The position numbers and the translations under genes are program-made. The notes beneath the pieces are model-generated. The model had not been told where the DNA came from and did not search any database. It was given only the letters and a program-made list of their open reading frames with translations. From NCBI GenBank assembly GCA_020444065.1, contig JAHLLQ010000008.1, forward strand, positions 142,138-191,448: DNA of 49,311 nucleotides, read 5' to 3'. The stretch is from a bacterium (GTDB taxonomy: Bacteria > Sumerlaeota > Sumerlaeia > SLMS01 > JAHLLQ01). Positions within the stretch are counted from its first letter, which is position 1. Every line of letters begins with the position of its first letter. Shown piece after piece: positions 43,769-49,311 of the stretch.

Positions 43769-43924
43769 TCAGTTGCGCATGATCCAAGTGAAGACCAGGG
43801 CCAGGAACGCGATTGCCGAAACGACCGCGCCGGTCCAGAAGGCGACTTCCATTCCCAGTGAATCATGCATGCGCTTGGAATCGATATCCCGAGCGATTTC
43901 CTTGGCGTGTTGCGGTGTTGGCAT
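43769..43924 (-). CDS. Small single-pass membrane protein (51 residues) coupled to the RNase E/G gene
   Basis: MPTPQHAKEIARDIDSKRMH, then an amphipathic stretch and one hydrophobic helix (AFWTGAVVSAIAFLALVFTW), ending in IMRN. A cytosolic N-terminus of about 28 residues with an inner-membrane anchor is inferred. Its AAGGAG ribosome site lies inside the last codons of the RNase E/G gene, and that gene's TAA stop falls between the ribosome site and this ATG. This arrangement implies translational coupling and is good evidence that the gene is real. No homologue recognised. Confidence 0.7.
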   Translation of the reverse strand: MPTPQHAKEIARDIDSKRMHDSLGMEVAFWTGAVVSAIAFLALVFTWIMRN

Positions 43925-43930
43925 GGGCTG

Positions 43931-46735
43931 TTACTCCTTCTTGGTCTTCGCGGCCTTCTTGGCCGCCTTCTTGGCACTTGATTTCTTGGTGGCTTTCTTC
44001 GCCGCGGCCTTCTTCACCGTCTTCTTGGCAGCGGACTTCTTCACGCTCTTCTTTGCGGCTGTTTTTGCAGCTTTCTTGGCCGCCTTCTTGGCGGATTTCT
44101 TCGCTGCCTTCTTCGCCGCAGACTTCTTTGTGGCCTTCTTGGCTGCTTTTGTTTCCTCGGCTACTTGCGCAGGAGCGGTGGACTTCTCCTCCGCAGCCGC
44201 TGCCGCCTTCTTGGCGGATTTCCTGGCACGGCGTCGAGCAGGTTTCTTCTCCGCCTCCGGCTTGGCCGGTTCGGGAGTCGGTTCCGGCGGGGCAGTTGCG
44301 GTTGTTGGGGCCTCTTCCTTCCGTCCCCGACGACGTCCGCGGCCACGGCGCTTCGGCTTCTGCTCTTCGGCCTTCGTCGGCTCTTCCGACTTCGCTTCGG
44401 CGGCCGGTTTCGGAGCTTCCTTCTCGGCCTCGTGACGCGACTTGCTGCCCCACGAACCGACGATTTCGATGCCTTTTCGCTTCGGCTGCTCTTCGGCCTC
44501 GGGGCTTGGCGCGGGCTTCGGAGCCGGCTTTTCCTGCGCGCGAGCCTCGCTTGGCTTCGACGAACCCCAGCTCGAAACGATCTGGATTCCGCTCTTGCGC
44601 GGGGTAGCTTCGGCGGGCGGCTTTGGTGTATCCGCGGCTTTCGGCTCGTCAGACTTCGACTCTTGAGCCTTCTGCTCCCCGCGTGGCGGCCGCGGCGGAC
44701 GCTGGCGGCGTCCTTGGACGGCAGGAGTCGCCGACTCAGCCGGCGCCTCCTTGGCCTTTTCCTCCGACTGCTCCGATGTTTCTTCGCCTGATTGTTCGGC
44801 CTGCTGGCCTTCCTGCTCCTGGCGGCGGCGACCGCCGCGCTTGCCACGACGTGTCCGCTTCCGGCGGCTGCGCGATTCCTGCTGCTGATCCTGCTCGGAG
44901 GATTCAGCCTTCGGCTCTTCCGCTGTCGGCTCTTCGCGTGGTTCATCCTTCTTGCGCTGCTTCTGCTCCTCGCGGGCGCGGCGCTCCAGGTCCTTTGTTT
45001 GCTCGACCGACTTCTCGTATTCCTTCTTGTCGCGGCGGCGGATTTCTTCCTGCGAAGGCTTGTCCTGCTTGCGCTCCCGGCGCGGCAGAGACGGCTCCGG
45101 TTTTTCTTCGTACGGAATCGATGCCGTCACCGTTTCCTGCTCGTGAACGCGCATCTCAGGCAACGCCACCGCCGGGTGCGACGGACGCTCCACGCCGGTC
45201 AGTTGATAATCCTCGCGATGCAGGCGCGTGTCGGCGCGCAGGATGATCTCCACCCCGCGTCCGTTCATGACCTCGCTGAGGTACGGGGCGAACTCGCCCT
45301 GCAACCTCTCTGCCATCGACGTCTCACAGGACACGACGACGGCGCTGTACTTGTCCGCCTCGTTCATCATCAGCAGCAAATCGTTCTTCATCCGCCGCCA
45401 GACTTCATCCAGGCGCAACACATGGCCCTCGCCGCGGCAGTACGGGCAGGCGTCGAAGACCTGCTTCTGCAGCGACTGGTACTTGCGCTTGCGAGTCAGC
45501 ATCATCAGGCCGAAATCGCCGATCCGGCCGACAGTGCTCTTGGCTCGGTCCGGCTTCATGGCCGTGGCGAACTCGTCACAGACCTTCGACTGGTTGTCGC
45601 GCGACATCATGTCAATGAAGTCGATCACGATGATGCCGCCGATGTCGCGCAGGCGAATCTGCTGGGCGATGGCCTCGCAGGCCTCCATGTTCGTCCGCAG
45701 CGCCGTTTTCTCCAGGTCCTTCGTGCCCGTGAAGCGGCCGGAGTTGACGTCGATCGCCGTCAGCGCCTCCGTTTCCTCGATAATCAGGTAGCCGCCGGAC
45801 TTTAGCCAGACCTTGCGGTTCAGCGCCTTCTGCAGTTGGTGCTCGATCAGGAACCGCTCGAAAATCGGCTCCGGATCGTCGTAATGCTCGACCTTGTCGA
45901 CCAGCTTGCGCAACTGCCGCGACAGCGTATCGCGCAGCTCTTCCGAATACTCCGCATCATCGACATGAATCTCGTCGATATCCGGGCGGAAGGCATCGCG
46001 GACCAGCCGCGGGATGATATCGTGATCGCTGTGAACGAGCCCGGGGTTGCTCAGCGAACGGAATCTCTGGACGATCGCATCCCATCCGTCGCGCAGCATA
46101 TCGACGTCGTCGCTGATATCTTCCTCATCGGCACCCAGGCCGGCGGTTCGCATGATCAGCGAGAACTGCTCGGACTTCAGCGAGTGCAGCAGCTTCTTCA
46201 GCTTGAAGCGCTCCTGCCCCAGCGCAATCCGGCGCGAGACGCCGCCGCTCTGGCCCGGGAAGGGCAGCAGAACGACGTACCGGCCCGCAATCGCCAGGTT
46301 CGTCGAGACGCGCGGCGCCTTGTCGCTGATCCCGTCCTTCACGACCTGGACCGCGATCACGTCGCCCTTCTTCACGGGCGCTTCGGCGTTTGGGTTCTTG
46401 GGATCAGGTCTCGGGCGGCGGCCCTTCGAAACGATGCGGCCGGGGAAGACCTTCTTCGAGGCCTCCTGCAGCGCCTCGTCCAGGTCCTCCTCCAGCATCA
46501 CCAGGGACTCCGGGCGGATGTCCATGAAGTGAAGGAAGACGTTACGTTCCAGGCCGATGTCAACGAACGCGGCCTGCAAACCGGGCACGACATCGCGGAC
46601 AATTCCGCGATAGATATTCCCGACGATCGACTTGGTGGTGAGGCTTTCCCGGTGGAATTCGACGAGTTTGTTATCTTCGAGGAAGGCGACCCGGACATCG
46701 CAGTCCCCACGATTAATGATGACCTTTTTCTGCAT
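43931..46735 (-). CDS. rne: Ribonuclease E/G with long disordered tail ending in a histone-H1-like Ala/Lys segment
   Basis: 934 residues. Catalytic half (about 1-520): S1 domain (IYRGIVRDVVPGLQAAFVDI), DNase I-like subdomain with Mg ligands D329 (TAIDVNSG) and D372 (VIDFIDM), and the Zn-link CPYC (430-433) that joins protomers in RNase E. It starts 5'-monophosphate-assisted mRNA decay and 9S/tRNA processing. From about 550 the chain is charged and disordered. Arg-rich patches (RSRRKRTRRGKRGGRRR) suit RNA binding. GI(Q/E)IV(S/G)SWGS occurs twice (716-725, 755-764). The last about 95 residues are repeats of AAKK/SAKK. AAGG is just upstream of the ATG. Confidence 0.95.
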   Translation of the reverse strand: MQKKVIINRGDCDVRVAFLEDNKLVEFHRESLTTKSIVGNIYRGIVRDVVPGLQAAFVDIGLERNVFLHFMDIRPESLVMLEEDLDEALQEASKKVFPGRIVSKGRRPRPDPKNPNAEAPVKKGDVIAVQVVKDGISDKAPRVSTNLAIAGRYVVLLPFPGQSGGVSRRIALGQERFKLKKLLHSLKSEQFSLIMRTAGLGADEEDISDDVDMLRDGWDAIVQRFRSLSNPGLVHSDHDIIPRLVRDAFRPDIDEIHVDDAEYSEELRDTLSRQLRKLVDKVEHYDDPEPIFERFLIEHQLQKALNRKVWLKSGGYLIIEETEALTAIDVNSGRFTGTKDLEKTALRTNMEACEAIAQQIRLRDIGGIIVIDFIDMMSRDNQSKVCDEFATAMKPDRAKSTVGRIGDFGLMMLTRKRKYQSLQKQVFDACPYCRGEGHVLRLDEVWRRMKNDLLLMMNEADKYSAVVVSCETSMAERLQGEFAPYLSEVMNGRGVEIILRADTRLHREDYQLTGVERPSHPAVALPEMRVHEQETVTASIPYEEKPEPSLPRRERKQDKPSQEEIRRRDKKEYEKSVEQTKDLERRAREEQKQRKKDEPREEPTAEEPKAESSEQDQQQESRSRRKRTRRGKRGGRRRQEQEGQQAEQSGEETSEQSEEKAKEAPAESATPAVQGRRQRPPRPPRGEQKAQESKSDEPKAADTPKPPAEATPRKSGIQIVSSWGSSKPSEARAQEKPAPKPAPSPEAEEQPKRKGIEIVGSWGSKSRHEAEKEAPKPAAEAKSEEPTKAEEQKPKRRGRGRRRGRKEEAPTTATAPPEPTPEPAKPEAEKKPARRRARKSAKKAAAAAEEKSTAPAQVAEETKAAKKATKKSAAKKAAKKSAKKAAKKAAKTAAKKSVKKSAAKKTVKKAAAKKATKKSSAKKAAKKAAKTKKE

Positions 46736-47094: not shown

Positions 47095-49311
47095 TCACTG
47101 TTCGCCAGAGAGCATACGTCTTTGCCAACGGCGGATGCTGGTCATGTCGAGTAACTCGCCTTTGAATTCGATCTTGTCGACCCTCTTCTTTCCCCCCTCA
47201 CTTGCGTCTTGAAGGTAACTGCTGATATCCATCCATCGCACTTGGTCGAATTCGAATTTGTCTCTTGCGGGGAAACGGCCATCAGTCTCCGCAAACGTTC
47301 CAATGACAAGCATCACGGGCGATGGCTGTTTCAGCCAGTACTTGACCCAAGCCTGCTTCTTGATCCGGAAGTACTCCTTCCCATCCGCGTGCCTCTCCAG
47401 ATGGGAGTTCCCGGATTTCAGTTGCAGGTACAGTCGTTTTCCCGTGCCTTTTCCATCATCATCGGTGAACTCGAGCTCCATATCGATGCCCTCGTCCTCC
47501 GTCCCGGGAATCTCAAAGCACTTTTGATCGGCACTCGTAATGCGGGCCCCGACCTCCAGAACGAGCAACTTGCCCTTTCTCCGAGTATCCAGACGCTCGG
47601 CATTCATCTTCTCCAAGTCTTCGACTTGTCTGCACAGATCATCGTCAGCGAACAGGCGCTCCAGGTCATCCCAAAGAGGGAACCGCTTATCGCATAGATC
47701 GCACTCGACAGTTGCCTGCTTCTTCTTCGAGCGCAGCTTCTTCATCAGGATTTCAGGATTGCCTTTGGGGGCGTGGCAATGGGGGCAAACGTAATGGCGC
47801 AGCCTTTTCACGCTTTCCGTGCGCCTCTTCAGGTGCGCGTGGATGTATTTTGCGAAGATCACCTGCTCCTGGATTGTAACGCCCTTCGCGAAGTAAATAC
47901 TAATGTCTCCGTGGTCGACCGCATCGCGAGTCAGCTTGACACCCATGTGGTGTTTGCCCGCCAGAGTCTGGAAGTCCGCCGCGTCGCGCCATAACTGGCT
48001 CAACTCGAAGGATTCGCATTCTGAGAGCTTCACGACGAGCGTTGCGTAGATTTCATCCAGATAGCCCTTCACGCGATACGTGACGAACACCGATGGGTAC
48101 TTCTGGATCGCGGGGCGATCGCGACCGCAGTGGCTTGGAAAGACCAGTTTGTCGCCCTGACGCAGACAAAGGCCCCGCTCCTCCAACTGTCTTTCCATCT
48201 CGCGCAGAACGACTCGTTCCTCGGCCTCCGGGAGACGTTTGATCTCTTCGATCTCACCATCGCGCTGCACAGTTTGAAACACGAGTTTCCCCTTGGAAAT
48301 GCTCCGCAGGGGCAGGCAGCCCAACTCGGTCGGATCCTGCCGCAGAGTGCGGATAACTGCCTGGGCATAGACGCTCACCCACTCCGGTTTCAGGAGGATG
48401 TAAGTTCCGTAATCCAACTCCTTGACCACACCCGGACTGTCCAAAAGCCCGATGACAGTCCGTAATGTCTCATCATCGAATTGCCTTTCCGTCGGCAACC
48501 GTTTCTGGAGCAAGTTGCGCAGTTCCTTGAAGGTAAGAAGCGCCTCCCCTTCATCCCGCAGTGCCAGGATCTCATCTTTGATCATCTTGTAAATGACGGG
48601 CGATGTGCGCTTTGCCAACTTGTCCCAGGGAATGTCCGTCCGAATTGCCTCGCTCAGCTCCTTGCAGCCGCTCCCTTCCTTGGCACTTGTTTCGAAGTAT
48701 TGAAAACCGCATTCCCTCGCGAATTTGCTCAATTTCGCTCTGCTTGCCTTGAAGCCCGCATCGATTCGCCCGGCCACCAGGAACTGAGGCGTATCGGGAT
48801 CTTTGCATCGGCGCAGTGCCATCTGCCAGTCGCGCAACCCTGGAAGCACATCCTCTTTGTCCGCATCGAACAGCAGCAGTATCAGCGCCGCTCGATCCAT
48901 GTGCAGTTGGTGAATCAATCGCTGATCCGATTGGCCTCCAAAATCCCACAGCCAGACCTCTCGTTCAACTTCTGCCTCGCTGGAATTTGTCGAGAGCCGC
49001 CACTGAGTCGACCAGGCGCCGACCGTTGACCCATCGCTTGGCCGCCACCTTCCAGTCGCCAGGTGATGGGCCAGGCCTGTCTTCCCCGCGCTCGTGTCTC
49101 CTACGAGCAGGACTTTGGCATTCGTGTACTCAACCTCACCTCTTTGCGATGGTCGGGCAGATGAATCGATGGACTCCATCTCCAGCCGGATATTCCAAAT
49201 GCGCATGACACCATTCCCCGCAGCAGAATGGACGCGGCGTCCATCAGGGCTCCAGCAGACGCTCCCGACGCGTTCCGTGTGGCCTTCCATGACGCGGAGG
49301 CAGCGGCCCGA
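47095..49311 (-). CDS. WD40-Roc(GTPase)-COR-zinc ribbon-DUF4365 protein, 5' end outside window
   Basis: 738 codons visible; the frame is open at the window edge, so the N-terminus is missing. Numbering is from the first visible Met (49290). A WD repeat ends the N-terminal part (GHTERVGSVCWSPDGRRV, then MRIWNI). Ras-like Roc domain: P-loop GDTSAGKTG (64-72), G3 DFGGQ (116-120), G5 TSAKEG (201-206); the G4 NKxD is AGRID, so guanine recognition is atypical. A COR-like winged-helix region occupies about 225-490. Zinc ribbon CPHC...CDLC (502-533). A DUF4365-like domain (about 560-700) has EGIDMELEF with D603 and YLQLKSGN with K625, a PD-(D/E)XK-like pattern. It is probably an immune or cell-death effector with sensor, switch and nuclease; this is inference. 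Confidence 0.85.
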   Translation of the reverse strand, partial: SGRCLRVMEGHTERVGSVCWSPDGRRVHSAAGNGVMRIWNIRLEMESIDSSARPSQRGEVEYTNAKVLLVGDTSAGKTGLAHHLATGRWRPSDGSTVGAWSTQWRLSTNSSEAEVEREVWLWDFGGQSDQRLIHQLHMDRAALILLLFDADKEDVLPGLRDWQMALRRCKDPDTPQFLVAGRIDAGFKASRAKLSKFARECGFQYFETSAKEGSGCKELSEAIRTDIPWDKLAKRTSPVIYKMIKDEILALRDEGEALLTFKELRNLLQKRLPTERQFDDETLRTVIGLLDSPGVVKELDYGTYILLKPEWVSVYAQAVIRTLRQDPTELGCLPLRSISKGKLVFQTVQRDGEIEEIKRLPEAEERVVLREMERQLEERGLCLRQGDKLVFPSHCGRDRPAIQKYPSVFVTYRVKGYLDEIYATLVVKLSECESFELSQLWRDAADFQTLAGKHHMGVKLTRDAVDHGDISIYFAKGVTIQEQVIFAKYIHAHLKRRTESVKRLRHYVCPHCHAPKGNPEILMKKLRSKKKQATVECDLCDKRFPLWDDLERLFADDDLCRQVEDLEKMNAERLDTRRKGKLLVLEVGARITSADQKCFEIPGTEDEGIDMELEFTDDDGKGTGKRLYLQLKSGNSHLERHADGKEYFRIKKQAWVKYWLKQPSPVMLVIGTFAETDGRFPARDKFEFDQVRWMDISSYLQDASEGGKKRVDKIEFKGELLDMTSIRRWQRRMLSGEQ

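What the first reader, a model, noticed from the sequence alone, without database searches (positions are those of the whole stretch)
43931..44220. RNase E/G carries a histone-H1-like Ala/Lys tail
The last about 95 residues are near-pure repeats of AAKK, SAKK and TVKK, like the C-terminal domains of histone H1 or bacterial HU-type tails (mycobacterial HupB). Fused to the mRNA-decay nuclease, such a tail could bind DNA or RNA and tether decay to the nucleoid or form condensates. I know of no standard RNase E with this ending.
Basis: partly seen in the sequence, partly recalled or inferred. Interest (0 to 1): 0.62.

Follow-up and report, generated by a model that had tools for sequence, protein, structure and literature searches.

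The report
Lysine-only tail on Sumerlaeota RNase E
In an uncultured group of bacteria (Sumerlaeota) the main mRNA-cutting enzyme ends in a long tail made almost only of lysine and alanine, kept as a basic tail in all twelve related genomes examined but also found on unrelated enzymes of the same cells, so it is probably a general phosphate-gripping arm rather than a tether peculiar to mRNA decay.

Summary
The window's only RNase E/G gene (43931-46735, minus strand, 934 aa) ends in a run of 72 residues containing only K/A/S/T/V (862-933), with 33 Lys and no Arg in the last 75. It is neither a frameshift nor a recent DNA expansion. Independently assembled relatives confirm it: all 12 genomes of the same order have RNase E ending in a basic, K-rich disordered tail. 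79 sampled RNase E/G proteins from outside the order have none. The tail is not special to RNase E: the same genome carries KA arms on at least eight other proteins plus a stand-alone H1-like protein. The metabolic enzyme PPDK keeps one in 11 of 11 readable relatives, topoisomerase I in most, PTS enzyme I in none of 11. Best reading: a polyanion-gripping arm on a scaffold-type RNase E (Arg-rich boxes, two conserved WG microdomains), mainly raising RNA avidity; DNA tethering or polyphosphate binding is not excluded. New finding: a 36-60 aa single-pass membrane protein is encoded directly after RNase E in all 12 order genomes and nowhere else convincing in 41 genomes, although the neighbourhood is not conserved.

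The parts
43931..46735 (-). RNase E/G gene, 934 aa, only one in the genome
45191..46735 (-). catalytic half (residues 1-515): D329 and D375 align with E. coli D303/D346, R196-T197 with the 5'-sensor R169-T170, CPYC 430-433 with the Zn-link
   Evidence: phmmer alignment with 2bx2; 70% mean column identity in 12 order members. Residue roles in E. coli are from general knowledge
44822..44875 (-). Arg-rich box 1 (residues 621-638, SRSRRKRTRRGKRGGRRR), conserved through the order; AR1-like RNA-binding candidate
44555..44596 (-). WG microdomain 1 (residues 714-727, KSGIQIVSSWGSSK)
   Evidence: W and G invariant in 5 of 5 family members; the two WG motifs hold all Trp of the disordered region in each
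44441..44479 (-). WG microdomain 2 (residues 753-765, RKGIEIVGSWGSK)
44318..44359 (-). Arg-rich box 2 (residues 793-806, KPKRRGRGRRRGRK)
   Evidence: sequence; composition
44207..44248 (-). Arg-rich box 3 (residues 830-843, KKPARRRARKSAKK), transition to the tail
43937..44152 (-). the H1-like tail: 72 residues of only K/A/S/T/V (862-933), Lys-rich, no Arg
43934..43939 (-). AAGGAG, a Shine-Dalgarno-like hexamer made by the tail's last Lys/Glu codons, 9 nt before the next ATG
   Evidence: sequence; function inferred
43769..43924 (-). 51-aa single-pass membrane protein gene, starts 6 nt after the RNase E stop; homologue directly downstream of RNase E in all 12 order genomes

Best explanation
This is a scaffold-type RNase E of the phylum Sumerlaeota. 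Behind an intact catalytic core lies a ~400-residue disordered region with Arg-rich boxes, two WG microdomains and, at the very end, a Lys/Ala arm. The arm most likely works as a non-specific polyanion grip: its ~31 net positive charges hold phosphate backbones, chiefly of the RNA substrate, raising avidity and residence time and adding valency for ribonucleoprotein clustering, much as Lys repeats raise the processivity of Streptomyces topoisomerase I. The small membrane protein made from the next cistron is the likely membrane partner of the enzyme. Shown: sequence anatomy, a basic tail in 12 of 12 order genomes, recurrence of the arm on other proteins, the conserved gene pair. Inferred: nucleic-acid binding, preference for RNA, clustering, membrane partnership.
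For: Tail in 12/12 order genomes with changing sequence but kept charge (net +12 to +31 in the last 70 aa) and few hydrophobic residues; protein-level selection (GC1/GC3 and codon mixing); charge segregation in the disordered region exceeds shuffles in all 12 (z 4.7-9.9 in 11 relatives, 5.3 in the window), as in condensate-forming RNase E where basic blocks bind RNA (PMC10412687). Class members of family f6 instead carry a basic disordered extension at the N-terminus, fitting a position-independent electrostatic role. Lys-rich low-complexity segments are enriched in DNA-binding proteins and reported in RNA binding (PMC6821194); Lys repeats stabilise TopA on DNA (PMC7398561); the disordered Lys-rich domain of RNase R serves tmRNA-SmpB/ribosome contacts and binds polyP (PMC12345225).
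Against: No binding data. The tail is Lys-only while the same protein already has Arg-rich boxes of the kind usually assigned to RNA, which suggests a different job. Arms of the same kind sit on enzymes without nucleic-acid substrates (PPDK, XdhC, LeuA-like, DJ-1/PfpI), so RNA need not be the ligand.
Confidence: 0.5

Rival explanations
1. Nucleoid tether: the tail binds DNA like histone H1, HupB or the KPAA domains of AlgP/PhaF and keeps RNase E on the nucleoid, coupling decay to transcription.
For: Composition matches H1-like tails; KPAA peptides and Lys repeats bind DNA (PMC9239181, PMC7398561); a stand-alone H1-like protein exists in the same genome; topoisomerase I of most relatives, UvrA and an endonuclease III-like protein of G001 have similar arms. 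Absence of Arg sets the tail apart from the Arg-rich boxes.
Against: Same arms on metabolic enzymes. A membrane-protein gene is coupled to RNase E in all 12 genomes, which, if it is a partner, argues for the membrane. No DNA-binding data.
Confidence: 0.2
2. Shared address arm: KA arms on RNase E, PPDK, topoisomerase I, DUF4912 proteins and others bind one common polyanion hub, such as polyphosphate granules, and so co-localise unrelated enzymes.
For: PPDK arm in 11/11 readable genomes, PTS enzyme I (same Pfam domain) in 0/11; arms on at least eight other proteins of this genome; polyphosphate kinase present; AlgP, an H1-like protein, organises polyP granules (PMC9239181) and Lys-rich regions bind polyP (PMC12345225).
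Against: Tail composition of RNase E and PPDK matches within genomes only weakly (permutation p=0.056; 0.085 with one genome per genus). No evidence that these cells make granules.
Confidence: 0.15
3. Lineage-wide low-complexity habit: KA arms arise easily by codon repeat expansion in this GC-rich family and are tolerated at protein ends with little function.
For: Tail sequence and length vary; arms occur on many unrelated proteins and differ between close relatives (for example TopA arm in G001 but not in G000).
Against: Kept in 12/12 RNase E and 11/11 PPDK while absent from all 11 PTS enzyme I; acidic and hydrophobic residues almost excluded in the own family; low GC1 held in a GC-rich gene.
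Confidence: 0.12
4. Frameshift or misassembly in a repetitive end.
For: Repetitive ends do break assemblies: the contig of G001 stops inside its RNase E tail.
Against: Open frame continues with the gene's GC3 and codon use; eleven other assemblies show a basic tail; the small gene follows directly in all.
Confidence: 0.01

Closest known systems
RNase E of E. coli and other gamma-proteobacteria (degradosome scaffold)
   Same: Catalytic core, then a long disordered region with Arg-rich boxes and short microdomains (PMC4435900)
   Different: Microdomain sequences differ (two WG motifs), the end is a Lys/Ala arm, and a membrane-protein gene sits next door
Caulobacter RNase E (BR-bodies)
   Same: Charge-segregated C-terminal disordered region; Trp-containing PNPase motif GWW (PMC10412687)
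   Different: Caulobacter's last ten residues are the PNPase site; here the WG motifs are internal and the last residues are the Lys arm
Streptomyces topoisomerase I Lys repeats
   Same: Enzyme with C-terminal Lys repeats that hold nucleic acid and raise processivity (PMC7398561)
   Different: Different enzyme and substrate; binding here untested
AlgP/PhaF KPAA domains and mycobacterial HupB tail
   Same: Lys/Ala-rich disordered C-terminal domains resembling the H1 tail (PMC9239181; HupB from general knowledge)
   Different: Fused to a nuclease; no Pro in the window's tail; no demonstrated DNA or granule binding
RNase R basic domain
   Same: RNase with a disordered Lys-rich C-terminal segment used for contacts and polyP binding (PMC12345225)
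   Different: Unrelated catalytic fold; exonuclease

Membership tests
RNase E/G | RNase_E_G catalytic domain above curated cut-off | tested here: met
   Pfam 318.9 bits against 25.5; TIGR00757 446 against 326
RNase E/G | catalytic Asp pair, 5'-sensor, CPxC Zn-link | tested here: met
   aligned to 2bx2; invariant or nearly so in 12 order members
RNase E of E. coli type | NCBIfam RNase E equivalog score | tested here: not met
   278 bits against cut-off 908; it belongs to the RNase E/G family, not to the E. coli-type equivalog
Degradosome-scaffold RNase E | long disordered non-catalytic region with Arg-rich boxes and conserved microdomains | tested here: met
   (disorder judged from composition)
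Degradosome-scaffold RNase E | binding of PNPase, helicase or enolase | not testable with these tools
   PNPase gene exists in the genome; binding unknown
Degradosome-scaffold RNase E | own membrane-targeting amphipathic helix | not tested
   no search for such a helix was run; a separate single-pass membrane gene follows
BR-body-forming RNase E | charge-block disordered region | tested here: met
   windowed charge variance z=5.3 against shuffles
BR-body-forming RNase E | RNA-dependent phase separation | not testable with these tools
   needs purified protein or imaging
Histone H1-like/HupB-like tails | Lys/Ala-dominated low-complexity tail | tested here: met
   46% K and 34% A in last 70 aa
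Histone H1-like/HupB-like tails | DNA binding and nucleoid location | not testable with these tools
   needs binding assay or imaging

The most novel reading that the evidence does not exclude
Sumerlaeota use KA arms as a shared address label: RNase E, PPDK, topoisomerase I and others are gathered on one polyanion hub (nucleoid or polyphosphate), and RNase E is also linked to the membrane by a dedicated one-helix partner encoded in the next cistron, giving an mRNA-decay architecture not described before.
Probability: 0.15. Interest if true: 0.78.

Novelty: new variant of a known kind. Interest (0 to 1): 0.5.

Why it matters
RNase E non-catalytic regions have been charted mostly in Proteobacteria. 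A phylum in which the enzyme ends in an H1-like arm, where the same kind of arm is kept on PPDK and topoisomerase I, and where a tiny membrane protein is always encoded next door, gives directly testable cases of how disordered basic arms and partner proteins place an mRNA-decay enzyme in the cell.

Tried and rejected
Single-protein search of genome contigs found nothing; the alignment search worked. The genome search with the protein failed twice, as did a sample centred on Actinomycetota, so full-length RNase E of that phylum, cyanobacteria and most Proteobacteria were hardly sampled. The first, stricter KKAAKKAAKK pattern found nothing in the genome. Tested whether RNase E and PPDK tails share a genome-specific dialect: inconclusive. 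Rejected: artefact; recent DNA repeat expansion. No paper found in the searched library describes a Lys-rich RNase E tail, a Lys-rich PPDK tail or Sumerlaeota RNases (titles and hits). No structure prediction was run: single-sequence folding of a disordered tail would say little, and complexes cannot be modelled here.

Full report
Source and gene. The window lies in a 5.2-Mb, 97% complete genome. The gene at 43931-46735 (-) is the genome's only RNase E/G, 934 aa, with a standard catalytic core: Pfam and NCBIfam matches over cut-off, catalytic Asp pair, 5'-sensor and CPxC Zn-link aligned with E. coli RNase E 2bx2 (residue roles from general knowledge).

The tail. Residues 862-933 are one unbroken run of K/A/S/T/V; chance expectation ~5e-32. 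The last 75 residues have 33 Lys and no Arg, whereas the disordered part upstream has 40 Lys and 41 Arg (p=1.5e-8). Codon use is mixed (Ala by all four codons, Lys AAG 30: AAA 7, counted over residues 839-934) and GC3 stays at 0.75 while GC1 falls to 0.40: the repeat is in the protein, not a recent DNA expansion.

Relatives. In all 12 genomes of the order (own, four of the same family, seven of the sister family) RNase E has a 300-450-residue low-complexity C-terminal region ending in a basic tail (G001's tail crosses a contig end and appears to continue in L080). In family f1 it is Lys/Ala; in f2 richer in Thr, Ser, Pro and Arg, so the H1-like purity is a feature of the window's family. In the wider class, members of families f3, f8, f11 and f13 have short proteins without a tail; family f6 has a basic disordered extension of several hundred residues at the N-terminus; two others (L021, L022) have KA-like C-terminal tails. 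Among the 79 RNase E/G loci sampled from outside the order (nearly all from other phyla) none has such a tail, but that sample is weighted to short RNase G-like forms and hardly covers proteobacterial, cyanobacterial or actinobacterial RNase E.

Rest of the disordered region. Conserved through the order is an Arg-rich box (RTRRGKRGGR). In family f1 only, two copies of a motif (hydrophobic-x-hydrophobic-hydrophobic-x-x-Trp-Gly) are invariant at Trp, and all Trp of the disordered region lie in them in all five proteins. They look like partner-binding microdomains of the type known from other RNases E (PMC4435900; Caulobacter's PNPase site is GWW, PMC10412687). PNPase exists in the genome; partnership is untested. 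Charge is more segregated than in shuffles in all 12 proteins.

Not only RNase E. A search for AKKxAKK-like DNA in the own genome and relatives (reversed control patterns 0-3 hits per genome) and inspection of the reading frames show KA arms in this genome on PPDK (C-term), a DUF4912 protein (N-term), a protein with a DksA/TraR-like zinc finger (by eye; no Pfam match at 1e-5), an LMW phosphatase, DJ-1/PfpI, XdhC, a LeuA-like synthase and an HD-domain protein (the last three short), plus a stand-alone H1-like protein. Orthologue checks: PPDK has the arm in 11 of 11 readable genomes including class member G012, whose RNase E has none; topoisomerase I in most order genomes (not in G000); PTS enzyme I, which shares a Pfam domain with PPDK, in none of 11. 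The arm is therefore a repeatedly used module kept on particular enzymes, some without nucleic-acid substrates. Whether the arms of one genome share a dialect is undecided (p=0.056).

A coupled membrane protein. Six nucleotides after the RNase E stop, at 43769-43924 (-), starts a 51-aa protein with one hydrophobic helix; the tail's last codons form AAGGAG nine nucleotides before its ATG. A homologue lies directly behind RNase E in all 12 order genomes (in G006 partly, at a contig end; in G001 about 240 nt downstream), a profile built from these finds each at that place and nothing else convincing in 41 genomes (the strongest hit elsewhere, E=5e-6, lies inside a 561-codon frame); an ORF of this kind appears at random points at a rate of 1.25% against 10 of 10 here. 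Between G002 and G004 changes fall 8, 9 and 31 on codon positions 1, 2 and 3, as in a selected protein. The four window neighbours tested were not found next to RNase E in relatives, so the link is specific. Pfam and NCBIfam give no match over cut-off. A membrane partner of RNase E is the natural guess; it is not shown.

Mechanism. Best reading (0.5): a polyanion-gripping arm that raises RNA avidity and valency of a scaffold-type RNase E, by analogy with Lys repeats of Streptomyces topoisomerase I (PMC7398561), RNase R's basic domain (PMC12345225) and basic blocks of Caulobacter RNase E (PMC10412687). Nucleoid tethering (0.2) and a shared polyP-like hub (0.15; polyphosphate kinase present) remain possible; a neutral habit (0.12) is made less likely by the 12/12 and 11/11 conservation against 0/11 for enzyme I. 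Binding, location and clustering are inferred throughout.

Noticed in passing
43769-43924 (-): 51-aa single-pass membrane protein gene immediately after RNase E, apparently translationally coupled; homologue at the same place in all 12 order genomes, no family match over cut-off.
   Followed up: yes
44555-44596 and 44441-44479 (-): Two copies of a conserved hydrophobic-x-WG microdomain in the disordered region of RNase E, found only in the window's own family; the sister family instead has conserved RESSSERRARRRR and DPLGSLLDNIEQQL-like segments.
   Followed up: partly
L065 (G000:C6:127.2 kb), L210-L220: PPDK, a metabolic enzyme, carries a KA arm at its C-terminus in 11 of 11 readable Sumerlaeota genomes.
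   Followed up: yes
L062:2348-3067 (G000:C1:889.3-890.1 kb): Stand-alone H1-like protein of about 224 aa made of KKAAKKT/KRVKK repeats; similar small proteins in G001, G003, G004 and G012.
   Followed up: partly
L003, L005-L007, L011, L012, L018: Class members of family f6 carry the basic disordered region at the N-terminus of RNase E instead of the C-terminus.
   Followed up: partly
47095-49311 (-): WD40-type repeat followed by a Ras-like GTPase (Roc/COR-like) protein upstream of RNase E, running off the window end; read by eye only.
   Followed up: no
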